Assembly: GCF_963082655.1 (NCBI RefSeq) | Contig: NC_081555.1 | Coordinates: 93,000,914 to 93,064,913, forward strand | Direction: 5' to 3' | From: Stomoxys calcitrans | Lineage: Eukaryota > Arthropoda > Insecta > Diptera > Muscidae | DNA length: 64,000 nucleotides | In this document: positions 1,746 to 64,000 of the stretch, one piece after another | Layout: every line of letters starts with the position of its first letter | Position numbering within the stretch: the first letter of the stretch is position 1 | Position numbers and translations under genes: made by a program | Notes under the pieces: model-generated | The model's input: the letters and a program-made list of their open reading frames with translations, nothing else | Told to the model about the DNA's origin: nothing | The model's database searches: none

Positions 1746-2042
1746 ATATTTCCTATTGATGTAGCTCAGTTGCGATTATAGTTAAGCCGAATCGGTTCAG
1801 ATTTAATCTTCCGATTTTATTCCTTGAGTCTCTTGAAACGGCAATTTTTGCTGTACCAAGTATGGTCGAATCGGTCCATAGCTCTCATATAAATTGATCT
1901 TCCGATTTCACATTACAAGGCAAGAAACACTTATCCGATTTAGCTGAAATTTCGCACTATGTTTTCTCCTATGACCTCCAGCATGAACGTCAGGTATAGT
2001 CCGATCTTCCGATATTACTTCTTAATCCTCTAAAAAGCGTAA
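1746..2042 (+). repeat. mini-me-type central repeat fragment
   Basis: Phrases such as ccgaatcggttcagattt, cttccgattttattccttgag and atccgatttagctgaaattt are diverged versions of the ~153-bp unit found in better copies at 9.3-9.7 and 22.3-23.3 kb. Neither terminus is present. Confidence 0.55.
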
Positions 2043-2043
2043 A

Positions 2044-2303
2044 CCTATGACACTGAACACCTGGGTTCTAATCCTGGCGAGAACATCAGAAAACATTTTT
2101 CAGCGGTGGTTAAAGCCTCCTATTTCTAGCGAAATTTGTGGGGTTCTATCCCAGCAAAAGAATTGCTGAATTTTCAGAAGCTTTGTAAGAGAAATTCAAA
2201 CTACCCAGCACTACCGGAGCACCATGTTCACGGTCGAAATTACAATGCAATGTCTCACTTGAATGTGCTTTCACTATGTCTGCTATGTTGTGTAGCGCAT
2301 TCA
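2044..2303 (+). repeat. tRNA-SINE-derived tandem unit, copy 1
   Basis: The unit opens with cctatgacactgaacacctg and a decayed tRNA B-box (gggttctaatcctggc), followed by the gcggtggtt and gcgaaatttgtg body found in the SINE at 6,854. The A-box half is missing. The same 260 bp recurs immediately downstream. Confidence 0.6.
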
Positions 2304-2560
2304 CCTATGACACTGAACACCTGGGTTCTAATCCTGGCGAGAACATCAGAAAACATTTTTCAGCTATGGTTATCGTCTCCTAATTCTGACGAAATTTGTG
2401 AGTTACTATCCCAGCAAAAGACATGTTGAATTTTCAGAAGCTTTGTAAAGGAAATGCAAGCCTCCCAGCGCTGCTGGTGCAATAAGTTCGCGGGTGAAAT
2501 TATAAGGCAATGTCTCACTTGAATGCGCCTTCACTATGTTTTGCAATTCAGCGCTTTTAG
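2304..2560 (+). repeat. tRNA-SINE-derived tandem unit, copy 2
   Basis: This is a direct repeat of the preceding unit, offset by exactly 260 bp, with the same B-box-like start and the same divergent second half (ttttcagaagctttgtaa, caatgtctcacttgaatg). The second half is not shared with the full SINE, so the duplicated unit is a chimera. Confidence 0.6.
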
Positions 2561-2808
2561 AAGCCCAAAATGGAGAATAAAAATCATTACCACTTCACTG
2601 ATTTTTCCTTATTAATCCAATCGTCGTTTAAAATCGCTACATGTACTACCGTTAGTTTAGGGTCATGTCATAAATACAAAAACAAAGCATCCATACAGGA
2701 GTGCAACCTAATATGCGGAGGAAGAAGCACCTACTTACACTAGTGCACCGAAAATGCGCTAGTTTCAGCACTTCAATTTTTTTGCATCGCGTTACAATTA
2801 ACACATTC

Positions 2809-2918
2809 TTTGGTCCCTTTTCATTGAGCTTAAACTTGAATGGGATATCACTGATAAGTCAGAAGTTTACCCCTGTTCATTATTGGAATGTTCATGGGCA
2901 AATTTGCATTTGCAGATA
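2809..2918 (+). repeat. SINE 3' half
   Basis: The stretch ttcattgagcttaaacttga, then gtttacccctgttcattat and ggaatgttcatgggcaaatt matches the 3' half of the SINE at 6,854-7,173. No tRNA-like head precedes it. Confidence 0.65.
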
Positions 2919-3154
2919 GGGCTCGCTTCCTGTCAACTCTTCTGCTTCGAAATTTAAAATTTATTAAGGCCGCCCCAGACATTTGCATCCAAATCAGGAT
3001 GATATCTTTGTACGCTACTGCAGAAGTAACTTTGCATTCTAAATGGCAATGATCGGTATATTCCATTTAGGAGAAGGTGTTGATTTTGCAAGTGTGACAA
3101 TCCGTAGACACTGGGAGAGACACGCATCTGCTGCCGTGTCTGCATGAAAGATGT

Positions 3155-4530
3155 CTAAACCCGCTTGATATGCCGCTAGATCTAAAGGTTCTCTCTTGTA
3201 GCTTTAAACCTCACGCTCTAGATCTTGTAGATCTATCTACCTCTGGCATCTGGGCGGTGGATACCTATCTACAGGATGATGATTTCGATGGTCTCTGCTG
3301 TAACTTCCCAGAAGGTTTTGCTTAGACAGCATGATGTCTTCACACGCGTAGAATTTTTTTCTCCTGATGGAGGTGGTCCACATGAGAACTGAAGAGACAG
3401 TTCGTCGCAGTTCGACAAATCTTAATATTATTCCATGTCACAGAGCTGACGAGACCACACTGGCTCCTTACCACAGACCGGCCCATTTGCATTGTACGTG
3501 GTCAACAAGGTTTCTTTGTCAGCACCCCAAGTGATGTCGGCAAGTGTTTTGAGGACCTTGTTTCTACTTTTGACCTTATCGCTAATTGTTGTGCCATGTG
3601 GGGAGAATGTGAAAAAGCTGGTAAATGTGACACCAAGTATTTTGGGACACTTGATGGTCGGAGTCATTTCTCCATCGACCATCAGTCAGCGCGGCATTTA
3701 CATCACACGTATTTGTAGTGTACAATGTGGCTGAAAAATTTGGTGGCAGATATCTTCAGATCTATTGCAGCGATATAAGAGGCAAGTGCGTCGATGTAGA
3801 CATTCAACCTATAGCAGATGTCTTCAACGGGTCGGGGGCCTAATGCTATGATCGTACAATCGTCCGCATGTGATACGATCTCTATCCCGTCTGGGGGGAG
3901 TGCAATGGAGAATAAGTAGAGGTTAAATAGTGCCGGAGATATCATCCCGCCGTTTCACTCTAAATTTGACAAAAGGCTCTACGGTGCTTCGACTTTTTAT
4001 CCCTAAATTATTTAAAAGACTGGCGACCACACAGATAATACGCGACCCAGCGTTTCAGGCCTGGATAGAGGGACGTGTTGGCGATGTCCTCATATAATTT
4101 GGCATGGCTGACCGTGTCGAATGCCTTCGATAGGTCCAGTGCCACGAGGTTCGTCCTATCACATTGCCTGGCTTGATTGAAGCCACGGCAGATGTGTGTG
4201 TTGATCGCATGCAAGGCAATTATTGTGGTATGCAGTATTCGAAATCCATGCTGATGCTCGGCGAATTGAAATTCTCCAACTTGCCTCGGGGGGGAGTAGT
4301 GCCTCAAGCGTCTTGACTAATCAAGAGAAAAGGGAGATCGGTCTATACGACCCCCCCCCCAAACTCGAGTCCTTTCCAGGCTTCAGTAGCAGGCTTACTC
4401 TGCCCATCTTCCAGACATCGGGAACTATAAGAGTGCTCAAAGGCAGGTTGAGCATCGTTTTAAGGTACTCAACTCCAGGTAGATTCAGATTCTTCAGCAT
4501 CAATGTAGAGATTCCTTCAGGGCCCAACGC
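3155..4530 (-). pseudogene. Jockey-type reverse transcriptase relic
   Basis: Ordered RT blocks can be read on the minus strand. MGPEGISTLMLKNL (about 4,525) and KMGRVSLLLKPGKD..YRPISL (4.3-4.4 kb) are blocks 1-2. LVALDLSKAFDTVSHAKLYEDI (about 4.1 kb) holds the first catalytic aspartate. MISPALFNLYL (3.94 kb) is the P-x-S-P-x-L-F block, and VSHADDCTII (about 3.86 kb) is the Y/FADD box with Tyr replaced by His. ILGVTFTSFFTF and DITWGADKETLLTTY (3.4-3.7 kb) are the thumb. At least four separate frames are needed, so this is a pseudogene. Confidence 0.8.
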
Positions 4531-4829
4531 CTAAGATGACTTGGCACCATGGATGACATATGTAACTTTGCCCACGGTAAATTGTTATGACTGTCCATCG
4601 GCTTGGAGACCACGCATACGACGAATGGCTCTCCTCCTAGTCCTGTCAATCTCTGGATGCACAATAAATTGCATCTCTTCGGATCAGTAACAGTTATGTC
4701 GCCAAAAGTGACTGAGGTCCTGTTATCTCGTCTAACGTGCCTCGAGATTAACTTGAAAGTAGACCACAGCTTGCCTAAACCGGTACCTAAGTAACATAGC
4801 TCCAAGTGTCCTAGCCACAAATTCTCTTA

Positions 4830-5362
4830 TGTGCGTTGACTACTCTGTCAATTTCTAGATTCAGCTGCATCTCCTCGTAATTCAACTTGCAATACGTGGA
4901 GTTTTCAATCTGCTCTGCCTCGCTCGTCGTTACCTAGGGGAGATTGCCATGAAACGTCATGCGTATTTAAGTCTCCTAGAACCAAACGAACACGTTGTAT
5001 ATCTATATCCCGGCAGTACCGGACTTGACCGCTATCCCGATTCACTCCATGTTGGGGTCACTAGCGCTAGGCGCAGGGGAGATAAGTCTATACTGCACGG
5101 AAAGGTGTGTCACATTCCTTAAGCGATCCTTAGGTAGCATATTGTATCCGTGATAACTGTGAAAGCTGCAGGTGTTGGTCAGCTTTGTCTCCTGAATCGG
5201 TGCAACCAATATGTTCTTCAGACTCATAAAATCTACTACCTCGTCGATCTTGCCGCTCAGACCATTGCAATTCAATTGCAAAAAAGCTACACATCTGGCA
5301 CTGGTCTGGTAATATTGGGGCTTGGATGCTGCTGTTGCCGCACGCGGGAGGTCGGGAGTCAC
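4830..5362 (-). pseudogene. Jockey-type endonuclease (APE) relic
   Basis: The minus frame contains FLQLNCNGLSGKIDEVVDFM, then ILVAPIQETKL. These are the first and second conserved blocks of the apurinic-type endonuclease that nicks target DNA in LINEs: the N-containing first strand and the catalytic QE(T/S)KL block with its glutamate. Downstream blocks (the GDFN and SDH equivalents) are not readable because of frameshifts around 4.8-5.05 kb. The frame is closed by stops. Confidence 0.7.
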
Positions 5363-5794: not shown

Positions 5795-6822
5795 AGCTAG
5801 GTGCTTGAAATTTTGCACAAATTCTTCTTATTACGGTTGGTCGTTTGGGATTGTAAATGAGCCAAATCGGTCCATGTTTTGATATAGCTGTCATATAAAC
5901 CGATCTCCTGATTAGACTACTTGAGCTTTTAGAGGGCGCAGTTTTCATACGATTTGTCTAAAATTTGCACGTTGCCTTTTGTTATGACTTTTAACAATTG
6001 TGCTAAGTACGGTTGAAATTGCTCAATAACCTGATATAGCTGCCATATAATCCGATCTTGGATCTTTACTTCTTGAGCCACTAGAGGGCGTAATTCTCAA
6101 CCGATTTGGTTGAAATTTTGTACGAAGCGTTTTGCTATGACTTTCAACAACTGTGCCAAGTATGGATCAAATCGGTCTATAACCTGATATAGCGGTCATA
6201 TAAACCGATCTTCGATCTTGACTTCTTGACCCACTGGAGGGTTCAATTATTACTTGATTTGCCTGATTAGCTGTCATATAGACCGATCTGGGATCTTTAC
6301 TTCTAGAGGACGCAATTCTTATCCGATTTGGCTGAAATCTGCGCGTTGCGTTTTGTTATGACTTTCAACAGCTATGCTAAGGATGGTTCAAATAGGTACG
6401 TAATCTTATATAGCTGCCATATAAACCGCTCCTGGATCTTGACTTCTTGAGCTACTAGAGGGGGCAATTCTCATCCGATTTGGTTGAAATTGTCCACGAA
6501 GTGTTTGGTTATGACTCCCAAAACTGTGGTGAGTATGGTGCAAATCGGTACGTAACCTGATATAGCGCCCATATAAACCGATCTTCGATCTTGACTTCTT
6601 GAACCTCTGGAGAGCTCAATTATTACTTGATTTGCTTCAAAATTTTGGAGGTGATATTTTTCTACAACTTCTAACAGTCATGAGAAGTACGGTGCATATC
6701 GAACTGTAACTTGATGTAGCTCTCTTATATTCGAAAAAAAAAATTCAAAGAACTTGTCACATGATGGAAGGAATATAAGACTCGGCCCGGCCGAACTTAT
6801 TGCGCTTTTACTTGTTTTCGTT
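5795..6822 (+). mobile_element. mini-me/DINE-1-type element, 5'-truncated
   Basis: It holds at least five diverged units of the ~150-bp block (ctgatatagctgccatataa, ccgatcttgg, gacttcttgagccactagag, atccgatttggttgaaattt). It ends with a GC-rich palindrome (cggcccggccga) followed by acttattgcgcttttacttg, the usual 3' terminus. The 5' (GTCY)n part is missing; the left end lies against a LINE 3' tail. Confidence 0.75.
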
Positions 6823-9031: not shown

Positions 9032-10071
9032 TATACCCTCCACCATAAGATGGGGGGTATACTAATTTCGTCATTCTGTTTGTAACTACTCGAAATATTC
9101 GTCTGAGACCCCATAAGTATATATATTCTTGATCGTCGTGACATTTTATGTCGATCTAGCCATGTCCGTCCGTCTGTCCGTCCGTCCGTCCGTCCGTCCG
9201 TCCGTCTGTCTGTCGAAAGCACGCTTACTTCCGAAGGAGTAAAGCTAGCCGCTTGAAATTTTGCACAAATACTTCTTATTAGTGTAGGTCGGTTGGTATT
9301 GTAAATGGGCCATATCGGTCCATGTTTTGATATAGCTGTCATATAAACCGATCTTGGGTCTTGACTTCTTGAGCCTCTAGAGGGCGCAATTCTTATCCGA
9401 TTTGAATGAATTTTGGTACTACGTGTTTTGTTATGATATCCAACAACTATGCCAAGAATGGTTCAAATCGGTCCATAACCTGATATAGCTGTCATATAAA
9501 CCGATCTTGGGTCTTGACTTCTTGAGCCTCTAGAGGGCGCAATTCTTATCCGATTTGAATGAATTTTGACACGACGTGTTTTGTTATGATATCCAACAAC
9601 TGTGCCAAGTATGGTTCAATTCGGTTCATAACCTGATATAGCTGTCATATAAACCGATCTGGGATCTTGACTTCTTGAGCCTCTAGAGGTCGCAATTATT
9701 ATCCGATTTGCCTGAAATTTTGTACGAGGGATTCTCTCATGACCATCAACATACGTGTTTATTATGGTCTGAATCGGTCTATAGCCCGATACAGCTTCCA
9801 TATAAATCGATCTCTCTATTTTACTTCTTGAGCCCCCAAAGGGCGCAATTCTTATTCGAATTGGCTGACATTTTACACAGGCCTCCAACATATAATTTAA
9901 TTGAGGTCCAAACCGGACCATATCTTGATATCGCTCTAATAGCAGAGGAAATCTTTTCTTATATCCTTTTTTCCCAAAGAAGAGATGCCCGGAAAAGAAC
10001 TCGACAAATGCGATCCATGGTGGAGGGTATATAAGATTCGGCCCGGCCGAACTTAGCACGCTTTTACTTGT
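9032..10071 (+). mobile_element. Complete mini-me/DINE-1-type element
   Basis: The 5' end is tataccctccaccataagat. It continues with tatattcttgatcgtcgtga, a gtcgatctagccatgtccgt core and a (GTCY)n microsatellite (9,166-9,215). The central part has 152-154-bp tandem units (9.30-9.85 kb). The 3' end has tccatggtggagggtatata, an inverted match to the 5' end. This is followed by the hairpin ttcggcccggccgaa and cttagcacgcttttacttg. Dipteran 'mini-me' elements are known for this (GTCY)n core, and DINE-1/Helentron-type elements for subterminal inverted repeats, central tandem repeats and a 3' hairpin. It encodes nothing; the 147-residue minus frame is a by-product of the repeats. Confidence 0.8.
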
Positions 10072-18149: not shown

Positions 18150-20135
18150 CCATATTGAATACGAATGTCGAAGAGCCCACCAAAACTGGACTAAACGGGT
18201 GGACCGTTTGAGGCGCAAACATGCAAAGGTCGACCTTTGCATGAAAGAGGCGAGTTCGGTGAACATTGCAAGACCTACCAGTGCATCCTGAAAAAGATAC
18301 AGTTTGGTGCGGTTTATGGGCTGGTGGCATCATTGGACCGTACTTCTTCAAAGATGATGCGAATCGTACCGTAACTGTGAATGGTGAGCGCTTCCGTGAG
18401 ATGATATCCAACTTTTTTCGCCCAAAATGCAAGTGAAGATCAGCCAGAAGAGCAAGAGCCATTGCAAGAGCTACCAGTGCATCCAGAAAAAGTTACAGTT
18501 TGGTGCGGTTTATGGGCTGGTGGCATCATTGGACCGTACTTCTTCAAAGATGATGCGAATAGCAACTTTTTTCGCCCAAAATGCAAGAGCTTGACTTGCA
18601 TGATATGTGATTTCATGCCACACAGCAGGCGTAACCATGGACATTGGAAAGACATCATTGAAGCATTTATTAGTGAGATATCCGCCGAAATGTTAGAAAG
18701 AGTATGGCAAAACTGGACTAAGCGGGTGGACCATTTGAGGCGCAAACACGGTCGACCTTTGCATGAAAGAGGCGAGTTCGGTGAACATTGCAAGAGCTAC
18801 CAGCGCATTCAGAAAAAGTTACAGTTTGATGCGGTTTATGGGCTGGTGGCATCATTGGACCGTACTTCTTCAAAGATGATGCGAATCGTAACGTAACTGT
18901 GAATGGTGAGCGCTTCCGTGAGATGATATCCAACTTTTTTCGCCCAAAATGCAAGTGAAGATCAGCCTGTAGAGCAAGAGCCATTGCAAGAGCTACCAGT
19001 GCATCCAGAAGAAGTCACAGTTTGGTGCGGTTTATGGGCTGGTGGCATCATTAGACCGTGCTTCTTCAAAGATGATGCGAATCGTAATGTAACTGTGAAT
19101 GGTGAGCGCTTCCGTGAGATGATATCCAACTTTTTTTTGCTCAAAATACAAGAGCTTGACTTGCATGACATGCGATTTCAACAAAACGGTGCCACATGCC
19201 ACACAGCACGCGTAACAATGGACATTGGAAAGACATCATTGAAGCATTTATTCACGCTATACCCGCCGAAATGTTGGAAAGAATTTGCCAAAACTGGACT
19301 AAGCGGGTGGACCATTTGAGGCGCAAACACGGTCGACCTTAGCATGAAAGAGGCGAGTTCGGTGAACATTGCAAGAGCTACCAGTGCATCCAGAAGAAGT
19401 CACAGTTTGGTACGGTTTATGGGTTGGTGGCATCATTGGACCGTACTTCTTCAAAGATGATGCGAATCGTAAGGTAACTGTGAATGGTGAGCGCTTCCGT
19501 GAGATGATATCCAACTTTTTTCGCCCAAAATGCAAGTGAAGATCAGCCAGTAGAGCAAGAGCCATTGCAAGAGCTACCAGTGCATCCAGAAGAAGTCACA
19601 GTTTGGTGCGGTTTATGGGCTGGTGGCATCATTAGACCGTGCTTCTTCAAAGATGATGCGAATCGTAATGTAACTGTGAATGGTGAGCGCTCCCGTGAAA
19701 TGATATCCAACTTTTTTCGCCCAAAATGCAAGAGCTTGACTTGCATGAGATGTGGTTTTAACAAGACAGTGCCACATGCCACACAGCAAGCGTAACAATG
19801 GACTTTTTAAGACGCGAGTTCGGTGAACATTTTATTTCACGTTCGGGACCGCTCAATTGGCTACCTAGATCGTGCGATTTAACGCCTTTGGACAATTTTT
19901 TGTGGGGCTATGTTAAAGCTCATGTCTATACAGACAAGCCCGCTTCTATTGAGGCATTGGAAAGACAACATTGAAGCATTTATTAGTGAGCTATCGTCCG
20001 AAATGTAGGCCAAAATTGGACTAAGCGGATGAACCATTTGAGGCGCAAACACGGTCGACCTTTGCATGAAATAATCTTCAAACATTAAATTATATAGACC
20101 TTGCTATCGATTCAAATAAAGATTTTATGCATTTT
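18150..20135 (+). repeat. Tandem-amplified Tc1/mariner-like transposase fragment
   Basis: The segment encoding LQELPVHPEKVTVWCGLWAG.GIIGPYFFKDDANRNVTVNG.ERFREMISNFF recurs six times (starts near 18,280, 18,476, 18,804, 18,999, 19,384, 19,580). Spacing alternates between about 195 bp and 328-385 bp. Long spacers also carry the downstream part (HDMRFQQNGATCHTARVT; HLRRKHGRPLHE). The last copy runs into the native C-terminus (FISRSGPLNWLPRSCDLTPL; GYVKAHVYTDKPASIEALE) and an aataaa at 20,116. FQQxGA and SCDLTPLD are the second and third acidic-site blocks of an insect Tc1/mariner-superfamily transposase. No copy is complete and most are frame-broken. Confidence 0.75.
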
Positions 20136-22030: not shown

Positions 22031-23593
22031 ATACCCTCCACCATAAGATGGGGGGTATACTAATTTCGTAATTCTGATTGTAACTACTCGAAATATTCGT
22101 CTTAGAACCTATAAAGTATATATATTCTTGATCGTCGTGAAATTTTATGTCGATCTAGCCATGTCCGTCCGTCTGTCCGTCCGTCTGTCCGTCTGTCCGT
22201 CCGTCCATCCGTCTGTCTGTCGAAAGCACGCTAACTTCCGAAGGAGTAAAGCTAGCCGCTTGAAATTTTGCACAAATACTTCTTATTAGTTTAGGTCGGT
22301 TGGTATTGTAAATGGGCCGTATCGGTCCATGTTTTGATATAGCTGCCATATAAACCGATCTTGGGTCTTCACTTCTTGAGCCTCTAGAGTGCCCAATTCT
22401 TATCCGATTGGAATGCAATTTTGCACGACGTGTTTTGTTATGATATCCAATAACTGTGCCAAGTATGGTTCGAATCGGTTCATAACCTGATATAGCTGTC
22501 ATATCAACCGATCTTGGGTCTTGACTTCTTGAGCCTCTAGAGGGCGCAATTCTTATCCGATTGGAATGCAATTTTGCACGACGTGTTTTGTTATGATATC
22601 CAATAACTGTGCCAAGTATGGTTCGAATCGGTTCATAACCTGATATAGCTGCCATATAAACCGATCTTGGGTCTTGACTTCTAGAGCCTCTAGAGTGCGC
22701 AACTTTTATCCGGTTGGAATGAAATTTTGCACGACGTGTTTCGTTATGATATCCAACAATTGTGCCAAGTATGGTCGAAATCGGTTCATAGCCTGATATA
22801 GCTGCCATATAAACCGATCTGGGGTCTTGACTTCTTGAGCCTCTAGAGTGCGCAATTCTTATCCGATTGGAATGATAGTTTGCACGACGTGTTTCGTTAT
22901 TATATCCAACAACTGTGCCAAGTATGGTTCAAATCGGTTCATAACCTAATACAGCTGTCATATAAACCGATCTTGGGTCTTGACTTCTTGAGCCTCTAGA
23001 GTGCGCAATTCTTATCCAATTTGAATGAATTTTGGCACGTAGTATTTTGTTATGATATCCAACAACTGTGCCAAATATGGTTCAAATCGGTTCATAACCT
23101 GATATAGCTGTCATATAAACCGATCTGGGGTCTTGACTTTTCGAGCCTCTAGAGTGCGCAATTCTTATCCGATTGGAATGAAATTTTGCACGACGTGTTT
23201 CGTTATTATATCCAACAACTGTGCCAAGTATGGTTCAAATCGGTTCATAACCTGATATAGCTGCCATATAAACCGATCTGGGATCTTGACTTCTTGAGCC
23301 TCCTCGGTCTATAGCCCGATACAGCTCCCATAGAAATCGATCTCTCTTTATTACTTTTTGAGCCCCCAAAGGACGCAATTCTTATTCGAATTGGCTAACA
23401 TTTTACACAGGTCTCCAACATATAATTTAATTGTGGTCCGAACCGGACCATATCTTGATATCGCAGAGCAAATCTTTTCTTATATCCTTGTTTGCCTAAG
23501 AAGAGATGCCGGGAAAAGAATTCGACAAATGTGATCCATGGTGGAGGGTATATAAGATTCGGCCCGGCCGAACTTAGCACGCTCTTACTTGTT
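22031..23593 (+). mobile_element. mini-me array member 2, most complete
   Basis: 5' end ataccctccaccataagatg, (GTCY)n at about 22,163-22,222, then seven to eight central units at a 153-bp period (for example ttgacttcttgagcc at 22,368, 22,521 and 22,674). The 3' end is ccatggtggagggtatataa with the hairpin ttcggcccggccgaa and cttagcacgctcttacttg. A 217-residue minus frame (22,155-22,808) exists only because 153 is divisible by three; its repeats drift like non-coding DNA. Confidence 0.8.
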
Positions 23594-23640
23594 TTATTAT
23601 AATTTCATTCTTTATCATATTTGTATTTCAATTTCTTTAA

Positions 23641-24565
23641 ATACCCTCCACCATAGGATAGGGGTATACTAATTTCGTTATTCTGTTCGTAACACTTCGA
23701 AATATACGCCTAAGACCCCATACATTACATATATTCTTGATCGTCGTGACATTTTAAGTCGAGCTAGCCATGTCCGTCCATCCGTCCGTCTGTCTGTCGG
23801 AAGCACGCTAACTTTTGATGGAGTAGAGCTAGCTGCTTGAAATTTTACACAAACACTTCTTATTGGTGTTGGTCGGTTGGAATTGTCAATGGGCCAAATC
23901 GGTCCATGTTTTGATATAGCTGCCATATAAACCGATCTTGGGTCTTGACTTCTTCAGCTGTTAGAAGGCGGAATTCTTATCTGATTTGGCTGTAGTGATA
24001 TAACTTATAACAACTGTGCGAAGTATGGTCCATATCGGTCCATAACCTGATATAGCTGCCATGTAAACCGATCTTGGGTCTTGACTTCTTGAGCCTCTAG
24101 AGGGCGCAATTCTCATCCAATTTGACCGAAATTTTGCACATAGTGTTTTGATATCACTTCCAACAACTGTGCGAAGTAAGGTTCAAATCGGTCCATAGCC
24201 TGATATAGCTGCTATATAAACCGATCTTGGGTCTTGACTTCTTGAGCTTCTAGAGGGCGCAATTCTCATCCGATTTGGCTCAGATTGTACAACGACTTCT
24301 CCCATGGTCTTCAACATACGTGTGCAAAATGGTCTGAATCGATCTATAGCTTGACACAGCTCCCATATAAACCGATCTCCCGATTTTGCTTCTTGAGCGT
24401 CGAATCGGATTATAACTTGATATAGCTCCTCCTCCTTCTCCGTCCATATTCATTATTCTTTGTTTGCCTAAAAAGAGATACTGCGCAAAGAACTCGACAG
24501 ATGCGATCCATGGTGGAGGGTATATAAAATTCGGCTCGGCCGAACTTAGCACGCTCTTACTTGTT
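23641..24565 (+). mobile_element. mini-me array member 3
   Basis: ataccctccaccataggata start, (GTCY)n reduced (23.77 kb), about four central units, and 3' end atggtggagggtatataaaa, ttcggctcggccgaactta, gctcttacttgtt. It joins member 4 with the same cttgtt/atacc junction as members 1 and 2. Confidence 0.78.
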
Positions 24566-26570: not shown

Positions 26571-27274
26571 TAGGACCCCATTACGTATATATACTCTTGA
26601 TCGTCTCGACATTCTGAGTCGATTTAGTCCGTCTGTCGATAGCGGTCAGACGCTTAAAGCTAGCCGCTTGAAATTTTGCCCAGATACTTAATATAGATTT
26701 AGGTCATTGGCGATTGCAAATGGGCCATATCGGTTCAGATTTGGATATAGCCTCCACATAAACCGATCTCCCGATTTGACTTCTTGAGCCCCTGGAAGCA
26801 GCAATTTTTGTCCGATTTGGGTGAAATTTTGCAGATAGTGTTATGTTATAACTTTTAACAACTGTACCAAGTACAGTCCAAATCGGTCAAAAACCTGATA
26901 TAGCTTCCATATAAACCAATCTCCCGATTTTACTTCTTGAGCCCCTGGAAGCCTAAATTTTTATCCGATTTGGCTGAAATTTTGCACAAAGTGTTCTGTT
27001 ACGACTTCCAACAAATGTGCTCAGTACGGTTTAAATCGGTGTATAACCTGATGTAGCTCCCATATAAACCGATCTCCTGAATTGACTTCTTTGGCCCTTG
27101 GAACCCGTAATTTGGCTGTTATTTTGTTCTGTTATGACTTTCAACATCTGTCCCAAGTACGGTTCAAATCGATCTATAGCCTGATATAGCTCCCATATTT
27201 TAGCAGAATCCATGGTGGTGGGTTCCAAAGGTTCGGCCCGACCGAACTTAGCACGCTTTTACTTATTACTTGTT
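26571..27274 (+). mobile_element. mini-me array member 5, 5'-truncated
   Basis: It begins within the core (ccccattacgtatatatact, cttgatcgtctcgacattct), has about four units, and ends ccatggtggtgggttccaaa, ggttcggcccgaccgaactt, agcacgcttttactt. Confidence 0.7.
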
Positions 27275-32877: not shown

Positions 32878-33420
32878 TGATTTGCGGATCTGCACCTGGA
32901 ATGTCCGCACCCTTTATAAAGAAGGTGCAGTATACGTGCAGGCGGATGTATTAGAGAATTACAAGGCAGATATTACCGCCTTACAGCAAATGCGATGGAC
33001 TGGGTCAACTTCAAACGGTGTCGAACTATACTACAGCTGCCATAACACGAGGCATGAATAGGGCTGTGGATTTGTGGTTAGTCGGAGACTGAAACACCTT
33101 GTTTCCAGCTTTACTCCGGTGGATGGGAGGCCAGTCACAATCCGCAAAAAAGCCAAATTCTTCAACATTAGCCTTATTTGTGCCCATGCCCCGACAGAAG
33201 ACAAGGACGAGCAGACCAAAGACATTTTCCACGACCATCTAACGAGAGAATATGATCGCTGCCCCGCCTATGGTATTAAAATCGTTTTGGGAGCTTTTAA
33301 TGGGAAGATAGGGAAGGAAGACATTTTTGGACCAACAGTCGAAAAGTTTAGCCTTTACTAGATAACGTCCAGTAATGGGTTGAGGCTGATAGATTTCGCC
33401 GCGGCAAAAAACATGGTAGT
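32878..33420 (+). pseudogene. RTE endonuclease relic
   Basis: Blocks: ICTWNVRTLYKEGAVYVQAD..LENYKADITALQQMRW (strand 1 and catalytic Glu position, E changed to Q in LQQMRW). From 33,074: FNISLICAHAPTEDKDEQTK, YGIKIVLGAFNGKIGKEDIF (GDFN, with D changed to A) and SSNGLRLIDFAAAKNMVV. A stop near 33,058 and another at 33,361 split the frame. Loss of the Glu and Asp would abolish DNA nicking. Confidence 0.75.
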
Positions 33421-33429
33421 TAGTAGGTA

Positions 33430-39559: not shown

Positions 39560-40803
39560 GGCTATCGAACCCGAGTCACCGATTTCGCTGAAATTTGAAA
39601 TATTGAGTAGTTTTAGGCCTCTTGAAATCTGGCCTAAATATGGTTCGGATTGGACTATATTTAGATATAGCTGCCATACAGACCGATCTTCCGATAAAGG
39701 GTCTTAAGCCCAAAAAAGCTTTTTTATTACCCAATTTCGCAAAAATTTAAAACGGTGAGTAGTTTTAGGCCTCCCGGCATCTGGCCCAAATATGGTTCGT
39801 ATTGGACTGTATTTAGATATAGCTGCCATATACACCGATCTGCCGATAAAGGGTCCGAAGCCCATAAAAGCTTAATTTTTTAACCGATTTCGCTAAAATT
39901 TTAAACATTGAGTAGTTTTAGGCATCTTGACATCAGGCCCAAGTATGGTTCGGATTGGACTATATTTAGATATAGTTGCCATATAGACCGATTTGCAGTT
40001 TAAGGGTCTGGAACGCATAAAAGCTGATTTTATTACCGAATTTCTCGGAAATTTGAATCAGCGAGTTGTTTTGAGGCACCCGCCATCTGATCCGAATATG
40101 GTAAAGATCGAACTGTATTTAGATATAGCTGTCGTATAGACCGATATGCCGATTAAGGATCTGAAGCTCATAAGAGTTTTATTTATTACCCGATTTCATT
40201 GAAATGTTAAATAGTGAGTTGTTTTAATTCTCCGACCCAAATATGAGTCACATCAGACTATATAACTATAGCTGTCATATAGACCAATCTTCCAATTTAG
40301 GGTCTTAACCCCATGAGTCCTCAGGACTTGAATAAAATATGATCGAGACCAGCCTTTTTAAAGATATAATTATGGATATAGTAGTGAAGTTATAATAAAA
40401 TAGGAAATACTATATACTATTGTTTGATTTGGTCCAGATCGGTCCAGATTTGGTTATAGGTGCCATATAGCACGATCTCTCAATTTAAAATTTTGGCCCT
40501 TTAAAAAGCTCATTTATTATCCGATTTCGTTGAAATTTGACGCAGCGACTTATGTTAGGCTTTTCGACATGCGGGTCCCATATGGTTCAGATCGGTTTTA
40601 TTGGGATATAGCTGCCAACATTTTGTTCTACAAAAATGAACAGTGACTTATATTTATTTGACCACTCAATGTTCGTGCCAAATTTGAGTGCATAAGTTAT
40701 CCAGTTTTCATCGGATTGTGAAGAAAGGGGGTTTACATATATACTTTAGGTGGTCAGTATCCAAAGTTCGACCCAGCCGAACTTAATGCCTTTTTACTTG
40801 TTT
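39560..40803 (+). mobile_element. mini-me variant element with 3' end
   Basis: About six variant units (tatatttagatatagctgcc, cgatttcgctaaaattttaa, gagtagttttaggc) lead to a 3' end with gttcgacccagccgaactta and tgcctttttacttgttttg. The 5' core is missing. Confidence 0.65.
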
Positions 40804-50204: not shown

Positions 50205-51296
50205 AGTAAAGTAAAAGTCGCGTAAAAGCGTGCTAAGTTCGGCCAGGCCGAATCATGGGACCCTACCACCATGGATTCTGCTAAAATATGGGAGCTACAG
50301 TAAGTTATAGACCGTAATTGGCGCAGTTGTTGAGAGTCATAACAGAACTCTATATGCAAAATTTCAGCCAAATCGGATAAAAATCGCAGCTGGTAAGGGC
50401 TCAAGAAGTCAAATCGGGAGATCGGTTTATATGGGAGCTATATCCGGTAATAGAACGATTCGGACCGTACTTGGCACAGTTATTGGAAGTCATATCGGAA
50501 CACTACAAGCAAAATTTCAGCCAAATCGGATGAAAATTGCGGCTTCCAAGGGCTCAAGAAGTCGAATCGGGAGATTGGTTTATATGGGGTCTATGTCAGG
50601 TTATACACCGATTTAAACCGTACCTTGCACAGTTGTAAGAAGTCAAAATAGAACACTATAAGCCAAATTGGATAAAAGTCGCGGAATGTAAGGGCACCAG
50701 AAGTCAAATCGGAGATCGGTTTATATGGGAGCTATATCATATTCTTGATATATGGCACAATTGTTGTTGGGGTCTTAACAGAACACCATGTACAAAAAAT
50801 CAGCCAAATCGGATGAAAATGTGGCTTTGGTGAGTCTAAGACCTTTAATCGGCAGATTGGTAGGGCCCAATTATCTCATTGACCTTGGGTTTGAATCTTT
50901 CACACAGTACGCTCGAGAGTAGCTTGTATGCGTTGGCTAGAAGACTTATTCCTCTGTAATTGGCACATTCCGTCTTGTCTCCTTTCTTGTGTTTGTTGAG
51001 GTTCCAAATATCGGGTATGCGGTCTTCTAGCCAGATTGCGCAGACAAGCTGATGCATACGCTTTATGAGCGCGTCGCCTCCGGTCTTAAATTGTTGAGCG
51101 GGTAACCCGTCGGCTCATGCTGTAGTCTGATTTCAACAGACTGTAGTGTGATTTTAACAGAAAAACGGATGGACATGGCTAGGTCGTCTTAGATTTTTAC
51201 GAGGATCAAGAATATATATTTTATAGGGTTGGAAATGGAAATTTCCATATGTATGACATAATGGACATGCCCCATCCATTGGTGGTGGGTATAAAA
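50205..51296 (-). mobile_element. mini-me element, minus, with RTE piece inside
   Basis: The 3' terminus is at 50,217 (gcgtaaaagcgtgctaagtt, cggccaggccgaatcatggg). Four units run to 50,861. A 250-bp RTE fragment intervenes. The 5' part (gaaaaacggatggacatggc, ggatcaagaatatatatttt, gggcatgtcc-like) ends near 51,296 with cattggtggtgggtataaa. Confidence 0.65.
50862..51115 (-). pseudogene. RTE RT fragment inside a mini-me
   Basis: The minus frame MHQLVCAIWLEDRIPDIWNL, ECANYRGISLLANAYKLLSS, VLCERFKPKVNEIIGPYQ is RT block 2 of the RTE family at 33.9-34.1 kb. Both ends are truncated. Confidence 0.75.
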
Positions 51297-53904: not shown

Positions 53905-54685
53905 TGTTTTGAGTTCTCCCATTCATTATTCCCACAACCGAAGGACGAGGGTATATCCAATTTGTCATTCCGTTTGCAACATATCGAAAACTCCATTTCC
54001 GACCCTATAAAGTATATATATTCTTGATCGTCGTAAAAATCTAAGACGATCTAGCTACTTCCGTGCGTCTGACCGTCTGCCTATTGAAATCACACTATAG
54101 TCTTTAAAAATAGGGATATTGAGCTGAATTTTTGTACAGATTCTTTTTTTTTGTCCATAAGCAGGTTAAATTTGAAGATGGACTATATCGGACTATATCT
54201 TGATATAGCCCCATATAGACCGATCCGCCGATTTAAGGTCTTAGGCCCATAAAAGCGACATTTATCATCAGATTTTGTCAAAACTTGGGACAGTGAGTTG
54301 TGTTAAGTCCTTCGACATACTTCTGCAATTTGACCAAGATCAGTTCAGATTTGAATATAGCTGGCATATAGACCGATCTCTCGATTTAAGGTCTTGGGCC
54401 CATAAAAGGCGTTTCGATGTCGACGAAATTTGGGACAGTGAGTTGTGTTAGGCCCCTCGACATCTTTCTGCAATTTGACCCAGATCAGTTCAGATATAGC
54501 TGCTATATAGACCGATCTCTCGATTTAAGGTCTTGGGCCCATTAAAGGCGTTTTTATTGTCCGATGCCGACGAACTTTGGGACAGTGTGTTGTGTTAAGA
54601 CCTTCGACATCCCTCTTCAATTTGGTCTAGATCGGTTCAGATATGGATATAGCTGCAATATAGACCGATCTTTCGATTTAAGGTC
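53905..54685 (+). repeat. mini-me variant, 3'-truncated
   Basis: It has the worn 5' end (tattcccacaaccgaaggac), the tatattcttgatcgtcgtaa core, a reduced GTCY tract, and about four variant units (ccgatctctcgatttaaggt). At 54,685 it is cut by a LINE. Confidence 0.6.
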
Positions 54686-58949: not shown

Positions 58950-59462
58950 TGTTGGGTCAGTTGAGTGGAGTATGCCGTTGCCATCTGTTGTCTTTGCAGA
59001 TTTTCAATGTCCAATGTCAATTTTCCTCGCCATGTACAAGCGGGTGCGAACCTTTGCTGCAACAAGGCAATGATCCGAATCTATATTCGCTCCACGGATC
59101 AATGGTATATCTAACACGCTGGATTAGGGCCCTTCATCTATTACTATGTGTTCAATTTGGTTACTCGTGTTTTGATCGGATGACAGTCATGTGGCGTTGT
59201 GAATATTTTTATATTGAAATCTGGTGCTACTAACTACAATGTTTTTTGCCACGGCGAAATCTATCAGCCTCAATCCATTACTGGACATTATCTCGTGTGG
59301 GCTAAACTTTCCGACTGTTGGACCAAAAATATCTTTCTACCCTATCTTCGCATTAAAATCTCCAAGAACGATTTTAATATCGTGGGCGGGGTCAGGGGTC
59401 ATATTCTCTCTCTAGGCGCTCGTAGAAAATATCCTTGGTCTGCTCGTCTTTGTCTTCCGTCG
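58950..59462 (-). pseudogene. RTE endonuclease cut by the Transib
   Basis: Minus-strand blocks: HDIKIVLGDFNAKIG (GDFN intact, 59.35 kb), DIFGPTVGKFSPHEIMSSNG, LRLIDFAVAKNIVVSSTRFQ, IEHIVIDEGP, RGANIDSDHCLVAAKVR (SDH block). The plus-strand sequence tctgctcgtctttgtcttcc, gtcg matches 33.19-33.22 kb reversed, then stops at 59,462, where CACAGTG begins. The upstream half of the endonuclease must lie beyond the Transib. Confidence 0.8.
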
Positions 59463-59469
59463 CACAGTG
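59463..59469 (+). other. Transib left terminus, RSS-like heptamer
   Basis: CACAGTG equals the consensus heptamer of V(D)J recombination signals and the kind of ends known for Transib. An A-run at 59,481-59,487 lies at roughly 12-RSS spacing but matches the nonamer poorly (about 5 of 9), so I do not claim a nonamer. Confidence 0.7.
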
Positions 59470-60893
59470 GGCCAAATGGCAAAAAAATTGGAAATAAGTC
59501 TACAACTTTTTATCTGTTGATTTTAGCCATACAAAATGTTCTAGACATTTGTAGAGGAGGACATAGGCTTTCAGAAAAGTGCTGTTGTTGGTCCATATCT
59601 TTAATACAGGGTGAGCTACAGGGTGTGAAAGTTGACCACTTTTGACTTCTCCAAGCTTCTGGGGGCCATAACTTTTGATCTACTCAACCGATTTACATGA
59701 TTTAGGACTCTAGAGAAAGAGCTTGACAAGATCTAAAAAACTTATGCATAAAGTACCATGCCATCGTGTACTGTTAAGGAGTTATGAATTGTTTAATTTT
59801 AAAATATGAAAATTTGGCCTTGGTTTTTTTCAGTGTTTTTTAAATAACTCCGTCAATTTTAAAGCTATAAACTTCATACTTCACACAAATTATGCCAGCA
59901 TATGTGTGCATAAAATACAAAAGGAATCACGTGAATATCTTTGGCGGTTTAAAAATGGCATCGTTTTCAATATGAAAAATATTTTTTTTGTCAAAAAATT
60001 GCAAAATTTTTCAAAAAAGATACTCCCATTTCCTTTAAGTTTTCGCAAACTTTGGCCGTCAAAGCATTATCATTTCTTTCCATTTTCACAAAGTCGAGGT
60101 ATTAAGAAAAGTTTTAAGTGCTAATTTGGCTAATTTCGATATCAAACAACACCGTTATCTTAAGACCAAAATGGCCAATTTTTTTACTAAACTTCAAAAG
60201 TTTCTCACTGGAAAAAAAGTTCCACGGGGATTTTTTCGCTTTTTTTGAACTTAAATGAAAGCTTAAAATGTTCCCAACATTTTAAGGTATGTCTCGCCAT
60301 ATCCTAGCCATAAATGAGATCGTAGCGATCAAAATACTGAAAAAAGTCAATTTTCAAGTAGTGCTATATTCATTGCTAAAAAACAAGTATTACGTCACAT
60401 TTTATTGCAAAGATGTTAAATAAACTTTTATTTGGTAACACTTCTTCTACAAAACACAAAAAGAATCATGGAAATATCTCTATTCTATTCCATTTTATGG
60501 AACCGGCAATAAAAAAGTCAATTTTTCAAAAAAGTCGAATTTCCCAAATTTTGTTTTTGTTGTCCTAATTGCACATGACACACTATAGCCATATTTACGC
60601 AACATACCTTATCGTAAAGGAAATTTTCATACCTTTCCAACAATGTATAAAACATTTCTCAACTCGGATTCTATCTACTCTAAAATTCATTTACACTTCA
60701 TTAAACTCTATATAAAAATGTCTATTTGTGAAATGGAACCTTATATGGGGCCTACACTAAAACATTGATAGATTTGCCCAGGGTTTACAATACAAATGTG
60801 TTAGAATAAAAAAAGGTCTCCTGCCAAAGTTTAAAAAAATTGGAATAAAAATATGTGTTTTAGAGCGAAAACACTTCGCATCGGCGTGCGTTT
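59463..60893 (+). repeat. Left terminal inverted repeat of the Transib
   Basis: 60,274-60,893 is the reverse complement of 63,381-64,000 with one difference (A at 60,642 against C at 63,632, which would pair with G). The outer 811 bp (59,463-60,273) has no partner in the window because the right arm runs off its end; that it is TIR is inference. It is AT-rich with no frame of note. Confidence 0.8.
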
Positions 60894-61137
60894 GTATAGT
60901 ACCTACATCTATTTTTAATGTAAGCTGATGATTTTTGAATAAAAAGTAACCTAGAAATATACCTGCATATATATATATATTTGTGTTAAGATTTGATGCA
61001 GACAAATGTTACCTGTTTCGCTATGTCGAATTCCCAGGAAATCCACCGTATCAATGAATGTGAAAAAACCTACCCATAAAAAATTCATTGTCATTTTTTT
61101 TAACCAAATTCGAGTCCAGGTAAATAATTATAGAAGA

Positions 61138-61265
61138 GTAAGTAAAAAGAGGCACTTTGGACCCCTTTTTACGATTGCGTCTGATACCTGAAATGGGTCA
61201 TTAATTGTGAATATATTGCATAAATATTTGAACAAAATCCAAATTTTCTTCATTATATTTTGTAG
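61138..61265 (+). other. Possible 5' UTR intron of the transposase gene
   Basis: gtaagt at 61,138 and a T-rich tract ending tattttgtag at 61,265 would make a 128-bp intron. The joined frame meets a stop (taa, 61,284) just before the ATG at 61,290, so splicing would only shorten the leader. The short upstream frame (from 61,006) is then a leader ORF, not part of the transposase. Confidence 0.3.
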
Positions 61266-61289
61266 AGGCGTAAAGGACATTTATAAGTT

Positions 61290-63332
61290 ATGGAAGTCAT
61301 ACTGAAGTATTCCACTCTTTCGAAAATTGTATGGGACATCAAAAATGATTCCAAATCATACACGGAGTCATTTAAGGAACTTGTTTACACTTTGGACCAC
61401 ATATATGGAATAAGGCTAAATAAAGACGCTTTAGACAAACTTGAAAAATTCTACAAATCATTTGAGAGAAGGTTGCCAGAATGTTCATTCGCAAAAATCA
61501 AGTTTTTCAAAATGTATGAGAAGTGGCTGAAATCGGATCTACTTATTGAAATTAAACCGCTGATTCCCGGCCGGCCTAGCAAAGCATACGACGAAGTTAC
61601 GGAGAAAACCAAAAAGAAAAAACAAGAGGAACTATTGGCGGCACATCCGCCAAATTTAATAAAAGATACGTTCAAAACAGCATTGTTAAAAACACAACCA
61701 AAAAATGTTGGACGAATTGTCGATGTTTTACCATTAGCATCTCCAAAAAGGGTAAAGAGAATGGTAGAAAGTATTCCAACTCCAAAATCGACTACAGAAT
61801 TCACGGAGGAAGATGCACTGGCCCTGATTTTGAACCTAGGCCTCTCAAGAAACAAATACTCAACAATGAGGAAGGCTCTTCGTGAAAAAGGATGGGGTTG
61901 TTTACCCTCAAAACATAAATTGTACAACACCAGGACGAAAATGGTGCCATCAAATATATACGTGGACGAATTAAAAGCAAGAGTGAAACTTGCTGATCTT
62001 GTTGAAAATACAGCTGTTAGAATTATTTCTAATTTTACTGAAGAACAGTTGAACACATGTAATAATTCCGAAGTGGTTTTGATCAGCAAATGGGGTTGTG
62101 ATGGATCATCTGGATTTTCCGAATATAAGCAACAAACAGAAATAGATACCAACTTCGCATCAATTTTCATGGCATCATTAGTACCATTGAGAATGAGATT
62201 GTACAAGGACCAATCTTCATCATCGAAAGAAAATGCATTTCAAGATATATGGATAAATAGAACACCTGGGTCAAAATATTTATGTCGCCCAATTCGGTTT
62301 GAGTATACAAAGGAAGACCGGAACACAACACGATCTTTGGTGAACGAAATAAAGGAAGAAATTGCTGCATTACCCATGATTGTTATAAACCAATTGGGAA
62401 GAAATATAAAAGTTTCGTTTCAACTACAACTCACTATGATCGATGGAAAGGTGGCAAACGCATTAACTGGCGTTATGTCCAATTGGAGATGCAATATTTG
62501 TGGCAAGAAGAATGGGCAATTCGAGGACAAGTCTGATGAAAATTTAGTAAACGAAAATGCGCTCAATTTCGGTATTTCGCCCCTGCACTGTAGAATTCGA
62601 TTCATGGAGTATTGTTTGCATTTATCGTATGACCTTAAATATCGGACTAGCCCTGGAAACCGCGATGTCTCTGCTAGAAACAACCAAGATCTTCACAAAA
62701 TGAGGCAGGAAGAGAAGAATCGAATCCAGTTGGAGTTTAAACAAAAGGGACTTATAATAGATAAACCTCTTTACGGATACGGAAGCACAAATGATGGCAA
62801 CTCGGCAAGGCGGTTTTTTGAGGACCCCGTATCGACATCTAAAATAACCGGTCTTGATGAACACTTGCTAAGACGATTCAAAGTGATTTTGGCTGTAATC
62901 AATAGCAAAAAGATGATAAATTCAACCAAATTTGAAGCTTATAGTAATGACACAAAAAACATTTTATCTGATTTATATTCGTGGAAAGCTTTAACACCGA
63001 CAGTACATAAAGTCTTACATCATGGCAAGGAAATTGTGGAATACAACATACTTCCGTTAGGAGAACTTACAGAAGAAGCTCAGGAATCCCGTAATAGAGA
63101 TGTTAAACAGTTCCGGCTTTTCAATACCCGAAAGAGCACCAAATTTAACCAAAATTATGATTTACTTCAATATTTATTGTTATCGTCTGATCCGGTACTA
63201 TACAGCATCAGAACTAAATGGCTACCAAAAATATGTGACGATATAGATAAGGACGATCCCGATGCCATTCAAATTAAAGAGCTTTTAAATTTTGATACCT
63301 TAGATTATTTGGTAGAGAATAAAATCAAATAA
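61290..63332 (+). CDS. Transib (RAG1-like) transposase, intact
   Basis: A 680-residue nuclear DDE recombinase that would cut and join the ends of its own element. Landmarks in order: GRP at 94-96, like the RAG1/Transib end-binding region, followed by a Lys-rich stretch (107-111). KWGCDGSSGFSEYKQ (267-281) holds the first catalytic Asp, D271 (RAG1 D600 position). LTMIDGKVANALTG (381-394) holds D385 (D708). C401-x2-C404 pairs with H573-x4-H578 as the zinc site. YGSTNDGNSARRFF is at 497-510. LTEEAQESRNRD (593-604) holds E599 (E962 position), and LLSSDP is at 630-635. All metal and zinc ligands are present, there is no internal stop, and the length is usual for Transib. The start ATG is the first in frame after taa at 61,284. 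Two aataaa signals lie downstream in the right TIR (63,842 and 63,869). Low-GC like the arms. Very sure of family; activity is inferred only. Confidence 0.93.
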   Translation: MEVILKYSTLSKIVWDIKNDSKSYTESFKELVYTLDHIYGIRLNKDALDKLEKFYKSFERRLPECSFAKIKFFKMYEKWLKSDLLIEIKPLIPGRPSKAYDEVTEKTKKKKQEELLAAHPPNLIKDTFKTALLKTQPKNVGRIVDVLPLASPKRVKRMVESIPTPKSTTEFTEEDALALILNLGLSRNKYSTMRKALREKGWGCLPSKHKLYNTRTKMVPSNIYVDELKARVKLADLVENTAVRIISNFTEEQLNTCNNSEVVLISKWGCDGSSGFSEYKQQTEIDTNFASIFMASLVPLRMRLYKDQSSSSKENAFQDIWINRTPGSKYLCRPIRFEYTKEDRNTTRSLVNEIKEEIAALPMIVINQLGRNIKVSFQLQLTMIDGKVANALTGVMSNWRCNICGKKNGQFEDKSDENLVNENALNFGISPLHCRIRFMEYCLHLSYDLKYRTSPGNRDVSARNNQDLHKMRQEEKNRIQLEFKQKGLIIDKPLYGYGSTNDGNSARRFFEDPVSTSKITGLDEHLLRRFKVILAVINSKKMINSTKFEAYSNDTKNILSDLYSWKALTPTVHKVLHHGKEIVEYNILPLGELTEEAQESRNRDVKQFRLFNTRKSTKFNQNYDLLQYLLLSSDPVLYSIRTKWLPKICDDIDKDDPDAIQIKELLNFDTLDYLVENKIK

Positions 63333-63380
63333 TACAAAACTAAAATGCTTTTTTATTTTGGGAGTAGCTAATATACATAT

Positions 63381-64000
63381 AAACGCACGCCGATGCGAAG
63401 TGTTTTCGCTCTAAAACACATATTTTTATTCCAATTTTTTTAAACTTTGGCAGGAGACCTTTTTTTATTCTAACACATTTGTATTGTAAACCCTGGGCAA
63501 ATCTATCAATGTTTTAGTGTAGGCCCCATATAAGGTTCCATTTCACAAATAGACATTTTTATATAGAGTTTAATGAAGTGTAAATGAATTTTAGAGTAGA
63601 TAGAATCCGAGTTGAGAAATGTTTTATACATCGTTGGAAAGGTATGAAAATTTCCTTTACGATAAGGTATGTTGCGTAAATATGGCTATAGTGTGTCATG
63701 TGCAATTAGGACAACAAAAACAAAATTTGGGAAATTCGACTTTTTTGAAAAATTGACTTTTTTATTGCCGGTTCCATAAAATGGAATAGAATAGAGATAT
63801 TTCCATGATTCTTTTTGTGTTTTGTAGAAGAAGTGTTACCAAATAAAAGTTTATTTAACATCTTTGCAATAAAATGTGACGTAATACTTGTTTTTTAGCA
63901 ATGAATATAGCACTACTTGAAAATTGACTTTTTTCAGTATTTTGATCGCTACGATCTCATTTATGGCTAGGATATGGCGAGACATACCTTAAAATGTTGG
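63381..64000 (-). repeat. Right terminal inverted repeat, cut by window
   Basis: Inner 620 bp of the right arm, beginning aaacgcacgccgatgcgaag, 48 bp after the transposase stop. It mirrors the left arm with one mismatch and is still matching at the last base of the window, so the true arm is longer. Confidence 0.92.

What the first reader, a model, noticed from the sequence alone, without database searches (positions are those of the whole stretch)
59463..64000. Transib transposon with an intact RAG1-like transposase and unusually long TIRs
The sequence shows a full 680-codon Transib frame with D271, D385, E599, CxxC and HxxxxH. It lies between arms identical at 619 of 620 positions that still match at the window edge. 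Transib is the transposon superfamily from which RAG1 derives, and its TIRs are normally tens of bp. Arms of 620 bp or more (1,431 bp if symmetric) suggest a lineage whose ends were extended, or an inverted duplication around the gene. It would also place promoter and poly(A) signals within the repeats. Near-identity of the arms implies recent origin or gene conversion.
Basis: partly seen in the sequence, partly recalled or inferred. Interest (0 to 1): 0.88.

Follow-up and report, generated by a model that had tools for sequence, protein, structure and literature searches.

The report
Transib transposon with 1.4-kb end repeats
A jumping gene from the family that gave vertebrates their antibody-shuffling enzyme has recently spread to several hundred near-identical copies in a fly genome, carrying end repeats about 30 times longer than those of its fruit-fly relatives, and a few copies appear to show how such ends grow.

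Summary
Window 59463-64000 is the left 4,538 bp of a Transib DNA transposon: CACAGTG end, intact 680-aa RAG1-like transposase, inverted arms matching at 619 of 620 positions to the window edge. The genome copy reads N beyond 64000, so its right end is unseen. The genome, almost certainly Stomoxys calcitrans, holds 1,535 exact termini (about 768 elements); all 65 scored best protein matches are identical and intact: a very recent burst. Recency explains the arms' likeness, since arms within an element differ as much as arms of different elements. Yet four arm positions carry the same two alleles in both arms, so arms have exchanged sequence. Three copies, all with identical 5-bp flanks, have one end replaced by an inverted copy of the other, lengthening TIRs to 1,537, 2,285 and 2,391 bp; I infer template switching during gap repair. 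Poly(A) signals in the arms are not supported. Hztransib (TIR length not seen) and Galileo are precedents: a new variant of a known kind.

The parts
59458..59462 (.). left copy of the presumed 5-bp target site duplication, CGTCG
   Evidence: sequence; 31 of 35 other copies checked have identical 5-bp flanks, commonest pattern CG[A/T]CG. The right copy of this element lies in masked sequence.
59463..60893 (+). left terminal inverted repeat, 1,431 bp
   Evidence: 60274-60893 pairs with 63381-64000 in the window; the whole length seen in 16 other copies of 5,349 bp
59463..59469 (+). terminal heptamer CACAGTG, as in V(D)J recombination signals, followed by an A-rich tract (59481-59487)
   Evidence: the first 45 bp are identical at 62 of 62 ends of 31 copies
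60894..60894 (+). arm position 1432: left G, right A; marks the inner limit of the matching arms
   Evidence: 15 of 16 full-length copies; L034 carries G in both arms
60898..61289 (+). unique 5' leader between left arm and ATG, presumed promoter region (TATATA at 60968 and 60974)
   Evidence: promoter role inferred
61290..63332 (+). Transib transposase, 680 aa, D271/D385/E599, CxxC 401-404, HxxxxH 573-578
63318..63323 (+). AATAAA poly(A)-like signal overlapping the 3' end of the ORF, outside the arm
   Evidence: function inferred
63333..63376 (+). unique 3' spacer, T-rich, between stop codon and right arm
63381..64000 (-). right terminal inverted repeat, visible part (620 bp of 1,431; predicted to end at 64811)

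Best explanation
This is an autonomous-looking cut-and-paste Transib transposon, 5,349 bp in its standard form, from a fly (almost certainly Stomoxys calcitrans) that has amplified very recently to about 768 elements. Shown: the RAG1-like transposase with its D, D, E residues, CACAGTG ends, 5-bp CGWCG-type TSDs, 1,431-bp TIRs in the standard form, very low divergence between copies. Inferred: the transposase binds only the outermost tens of bp, cuts by the nick-hairpin route of Hztransib and RAG, and inserts at CGWCG; the transposase mRNA starts in the 392-bp leader and ends at the AATAAA on the stop codon, so that it carries neither arm and does not fold into long double-stranded RNA. The break left by excision is refilled from a template copy. 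Incomplete refilling gives internal deletions. Switching between the two arms during refilling moves alleles from arm to arm and can carry the opposite end inward past the arm, giving copies with longer TIRs. I think this is how the 1.4-kb arms themselves arose from short ones.
For: Identity: Hztransib 6pqn E 6.8e-84; predicted fold, mean pLDDT 81.5, best match Hztransib 6pqx (TM 0.90 on the target), then mouse RAG1/2 and amphioxus RAGL chains; Pfam RAG1 just below its cut-off, 24.1 of 25 bits. Full length: 16 of 31 exactly 5,349 bp, 22 of 31 within 5,339-5,351; in a sample not chosen for overall similarity, the 48 paired ends among the first 100 ends of C1, 25 are exactly 5,349. TSD: 27 of 31 identical plus 4 of 4 further copies. 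Activity: 1,535 exact 41-bp termini, control 0; 65 of 65 scored ORFs identical (best-scored of 1,494 candidates); 20 of 31 copies with a 680-aa ORF, 13 identical to the window's; 16 full-length copies differ by a mean 0.093%, all 11 variable core sites seen in one copy each. Exchange: arm positions 165, 380, 596, 1180 are polymorphic in both arms with the same alleles, chance overlap 2.5e-8; L034 carries the left base at right-arm position 1432. TIR growth: L021, L023, L037, each with identical 5-bp flanks. An older related relic, L044, also carries inverted C-terminal coding sequence on its left side.
Against: Only 3 of 31 copies show inverted replacement; all 4 shortened copies that I took from the length list were plain internal deletions, and a 7,024-bp copy was a nested insertion, not TIR growth. 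Whether lengthened copies themselves move is unknown, because the junction searches did not complete. The copies came from the 40 best matches (of 339 candidates) to window 59463-60100, so divergence is underestimated and allele combinations at arm positions 165, 380 and 596 are biased. Linkage of the two arms at position 1180, outside the query, is not significant (Fisher p 0.11). Four of 31 copies lack exactly matching flanks; in one (L010) a single extra base accounts for it. No transcript or excision product was examined; the host name is inferred.
Confidence: 0.82

Rival explanations
1. The inverted arms are an assembly artefact, such as a fold-back of reads or a mis-joined duplicate.
For: Near-perfect long inverted repeats are a classic artefact, and the window copy's right end is masked.
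Against: The same structure with different flanks and identical 5-bp TSDs recurs in 27 of 31 copies, and 16 of 31 have one exact length; 771 + 764 exact termini.
Confidence: 0.01
2. The arms are near-identical because each element keeps homogenising its own two arms by gene conversion, independent of age.
For: The same alleles segregate in both arms; 12 GG and 6 AA against 9 mixed at position 1180 in 27 copies.
Against: Mean within-element arm difference 2.63 equals the between-element 2.62; linkage p 0.11. Core divergence is equally tiny (0.055% per site), so recency suffices.
Confidence: 0.15
3. The long arms arose in one step by fusion of two elements or capture of foreign DNA between two ends, not by template switching.
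For: The inner end of the arm carries a 23-bp stretch 83% like the terminus in direct orientation.
Against: That match is not beyond chance: 19 of 32, reached or exceeded in 161 of 500 Markov shuffles. Three present-day copies show inverted end replacement.
Confidence: 0.25
4. The long arms are selected for a function, for example as silencing-resistant boundaries or as carriers of subterminal transposase sites.
For: 25 of 48 sampled elements have the exact full length; the arm has many short internal repeats.
Against: A burst from one founder gives uniform length without selection; the internal repeats are weak and AT-rich.
Confidence: 0.12

Closest known systems
Hztransib (Helicoverpa zea Transib; structures 6pqn, 6pqx)
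   Same: Transposase homologous over residues 165-643 and same predicted fold; 5-bp TSD GCTCG; described as having long TIRs (PMC1852546, passages)
   Different: 3,518 bp against 5,349; deduced protein 489 aa against 680; its TIR length is in a figure not held, so it could not be compared; a Helicoverpa armigera protein (P0052) falls outside the window's clade, but Hztransib itself was not in the tree
Drosophila melanogaster hopper and transib1-4
   Same: Transib superfamily; 5-bp TSD for hopper and transib2, GC-rich target motif for hopper (PMC3276498, passages)
   Different: TIR 33-45 bp and element 1,435-2,883 bp (PMC10299278 Table 1); target motif CCANTGG, not CGWCG
Galileo (P superfamily, Drosophila)
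   Same: TIRs up to about 1.2-1.6 kb or more, variable in length; arm exchange and recruitment of internal sequence into the TIR; long TIR called a convergent trait (PMC3573991, passages); template switching in gap repair named as a source of defective copies (PMC4168063, passages)
   Different: Different transposase superfamily; 7-bp TSD; in D. mojavensis its longest-TIR copies never carry the transposase gene and no functional transposase was found, whereas here L037 has 2,391-bp TIRs and a 680-aa ORF
ProtoRAG / RAGL transposons
   Same: RAG1-like catalytic core, CAC-starting ends, 5-bp TSD (PMC7204232, passages)
   Different: No RAG2-like gene seen here; weak sequence similarity to RAG1L (E 5e-5)

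Membership tests
Transib superfamily | RAG1-core-like transposase with catalytic D, D, E | tested here: met
Transib superfamily | termini beginning CAC, RSS-like heptamer plus A-rich tract | tested here: met
   CACAGTG at 62 of 62 ends of 31 copies
Transib superfamily | 5-bp target site duplication | tested here: met
   31 of 35 copies checked; window copy seen on its left side only
Transib superfamily | single gene, no RAG2 partner | tested here: met
   the only frame over 300 aa in the visible part of the element is the transposase; the unseen right arm mirrors the left arm in other copies
Transib superfamily | TIRs of tens of bp (usual, not defining) | tested here: not met
   1,431 bp against 33-45 bp in D. 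melanogaster
Transib superfamily | cut-and-paste transposition by nick-hairpin cleavage | not testable with these tools
   needs biochemistry
RAGL / ProtoRAG transposon | convergent RAG2-like gene | tested here: not met
   no second gene-sized frame inside the visible element; a spliced gene was not modelled, but the non-arm DNA outside the ORF is only 392 + 44 bp
Galileo / P superfamily | P-type transposase and 7-8-bp TSD | tested here: not met
   RAG1-type transposase, 5-bp TSD

The most novel reading that the evidence does not exclude
TIR length in this Transib is a ratchet driven by its own excision: gap repair that switches template between the two arms keeps exchanging arm sequence and now and then drags the opposite end inward, so arms grow stepwise (from tens of bp to 1.4 kb, with 1.5-2.4 kb variants arising now) while the gene survives. 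L037, with 2,391-bp TIRs, a 680-aa ORF and identical 5-bp flanks, would be a candidate next step.
Probability: 0.35. Interest if true: 0.65.

Novelty: new variant of a known kind. Interest (0 to 1): 0.55.

Why it matters
Transib is the superfamily from which the RAG1 recombinase core derives (PMC4411706, passages). A family with about 768 elements and many copies encoding one identical transposase is a natural system in which a RAG-like transposase has evidently worked recently. It suggests that end recognition by this enzyme tolerates 1.4 kb of inverted repeat behind the signal, and it offers a sample in which growth of TIRs by end replacement can be counted instead of guessed.

Tried and rejected
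Relatives in viral contigs and in bacterial/archaeal genomes: none confirmed in three scans. An internal second terminus at 60815-60846: rejected as chance. Poly(A) signal in the arms: not needed; two AATAAA do occur inside the right arm, at 63842 and 63868, but one precedes it. Assembly artefact: rejected. Growth of TIR in the 7,024-bp copy: rejected, a nested insertion of about 1.7 kb. Rfam: no match in the window at gathering scores. Pfam on five other window frames: nothing above cut-off. Literature: no paper with both 'Stomoxys calcitrans' and 'Transib' nor 'Stomoxys calcitrans genome' with 'DNA transposons' in the held library; long-TIR Transib searches, (listings only, apart from the papers cited by passages). 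Kapitonov and Jurka 2005 was not held, so its TIR data were not seen.
Full report
What is in the window. The frame at 61290-63332 encodes 680 aa. It matches the Hztransib structure over residues 165-643 at E 6.8e-84, and amphioxus RAG1L and vertebrate RAG1 only weakly, E 5e-5 and 7e-5. In 22 aligned proteins D271 and D385 are invariant and C401, C404, H573, H578 and E599 at least 90% conserved. The predicted model (mean pLDDT 81.5) is closest to Hztransib and next to RAG1 and RAGL structures. In a tree of 62 of the 120 listed proteins, the window protein pairs with an unnamed protein of 66% identity inside a ten-member clade that also holds a bagworm moth (Eumeta) record; another Stomoxys protein (P0042) and the Helicoverpa one fall elsewhere. 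The arms 60274-60897 and 63377-64000 match at 622 of 624 positions, 619 of 620 if ended at 60893.

How long the element is. The genome search first answered, after six busy replies. The window lies at G000:C4:93000914-93064913 of a 1.07-Gb assembly. The masked stretch after 64000 hides the window copy's right end. I fetched the 33 elements behind all 40 hits: the window copy, one (L012) in which only one end was found, and 31 with both ends. Sixteen of the 31 are exactly 5,349 bp and 22 lie within 5,339-5,351 bp. An element starting at 59463 would then end at 64811. In the 16, the arms match over 1,431 bp with 0-4 substitutions per copy; position 1432 then differs between left and right in 15 of 16. 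Identical 5-bp flanks occur in 27 of 31 and in 4 of 4 further copies. In the 27 the pattern is CG[A/T]CG: C in 22, G in 23, A or T in 26, C in 23, G in 23. L010 has CGTAG on both sides with one extra base on the left; L028, L031 and L039 have unlike flanks.

Host. C1 of G000 is 271,964,629 bp long, the same length as the contig listed for a Stomoxys calcitrans protein record (P0054), and part of another protein filed as Stomoxys (P0042) is found at 97%. The assembly is unnamed, so this is an inference, but a strong one.

Copy number and age. The exact 41-bp terminus occurs 771 times forward and 764 times reversed, against 0 and 0 for the control: about 768 elements if each has two ends. The 100 ends listed (C1, first 66 Mb) form 48 pairs and 4 singles; 25 pairs are exactly 5,349 bp and 33 lie within 5,340-5,360. 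All 65 scored protein matches, the best-scored of 1,494 candidates and all on C1, are 100% identical to the window protein with no stop. Of 31 fetched copies, 20 have a 680-aa frame and 13 of these equal the window's. The 16 full-length copies differ by a mean 0.093%; the 11 variable core sites are each seen in one copy only, the pattern of a burst. These copies were chosen for similarity to window 59463-60100, so the figure is a lower bound; four shortened copies chosen by length alone are still about 99.6-99.9% like copy L016 in their aligned pieces.

Arms exchange sequence, but recency explains their likeness. Nine left-arm and seven right-arm sites vary in the 16 copies; positions 165, 380, 596 and 1180 are in both lists with the same two alleles, where 0.04 shared positions are expected (P 2.5e-8). 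With 30 copies the non-single arm variants are 165, 596 and 1180, all shared, apart from positions 1413-1430, which I set aside as alignment noise from copies with deletions reaching into the arm (with that noise counted the overlap still has P 4e-5). Yet arms within one element differ as much (2.63) as arms of different elements (2.62), and linkage at position 1180 is not significant. So exchange happened somewhere in the family's history, but constant self-correction is not needed. Positions 165, 380 and 596 lie inside the search query, which biases which combinations were sampled, not which alleles exist in each arm.

TIRs being lengthened. Copies L017, L022, L025, L038, L040 and L046-L049 are internal deletions that keep both ends, the usual trace of interrupted gap repair. 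Three copies differ: L023 is reference 1-2305 joined to inverted 1537-1; L037 is inverted 5349-2959 joined to 1798-5349; L021 is inverted 5349-3065 joined to 2932-5349 with 50 bp missing from its right arm. Their TIRs are 1,537, 2,391 and, apart from that gap, 2,285 bp. All three have identical 5-bp flanks (L021 CGATG, L023 CGATG, L037 CAACG), so they are not recombinants between distant loci; L023 carries the left base in its right arm and L037 the right base in its left arm at position 1432, as the structure requires. L037 keeps a 680-aa frame that differs from the window's at two residues. The simplest reading is that a broken end copied one arm, switched to the other within the 1.4 kb of identity, ran on past the arm and was then joined to the other end. 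An older, decayed Transib relative in the same genome (L044) carries inverted C-terminal coding sequence left of its gene and matching arms of about 450 bp (left) and 280 bp (right); this is one relic, and its ends were not identified.

Gene layout. The ATG lies 392 bp inside the left arm, and AATAAA at 63318-63323 precedes the stop codon. A transcript that ends there would carry neither arm. Two further AATAAA lie in the right arm (63842, 63868), so a longer transcript is possible. No RNA was seen.

Relation to what is known. D. melanogaster Transibs have TIRs of 33-45 bp. Hztransib is described as having long TIRs, so length alone is not without precedent. Galileo, of another superfamily, shows the same kind of TIR dynamics, and its authors call long TIRs a convergent trait. 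What is new here, as far as the searches show, is a Transib with 1.4-kb TIRs as its standard form, in a large recent burst, with the gene still intact in a TIR-lengthened copy.

Noticed in passing
window 59227-59462: The element sits in a decayed non-LTR retrotransposon fragment (endonuclease-like reading on the minus strand) 86% like another fragment at window 33192-33426; the family label is recalled, not from a call.
   Followed up: partly
L028, L031, L039: Three copies have unlike 5-bp flanks, which would fit chromosome rearrangements by recombination between distant copies.
   Followed up: no
window 5880-6641, 9314-9874, 22335-24378, 26744-27103, 39578-40226, 50309-50669, 54200-54685: Several separate short arrays of a 152-153-bp tandem unit, with consensus units that look alike in part, scattered over the window.
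   Followed up: no
window 18785-19732: Tandem array with a 196-bp unit, 4.9 copies at 67% matches, overlapping an open frame at 18405-18896 without Pfam match.
   Followed up: no
L043, L044, L045 and G000:C3:110863269-110864300: Decayed copies (1 to 6 stops in the matched part) of an older Transib family about 49% alike in protein; 5 of 103 matches, at 4 places, belong to it, the other 98 have the identity (49%) of the window family.
   Followed up: partly
L020: A copy with an intact 680-aa frame and a 148-bp tandem duplication inside its left arm.
   Followed up: no
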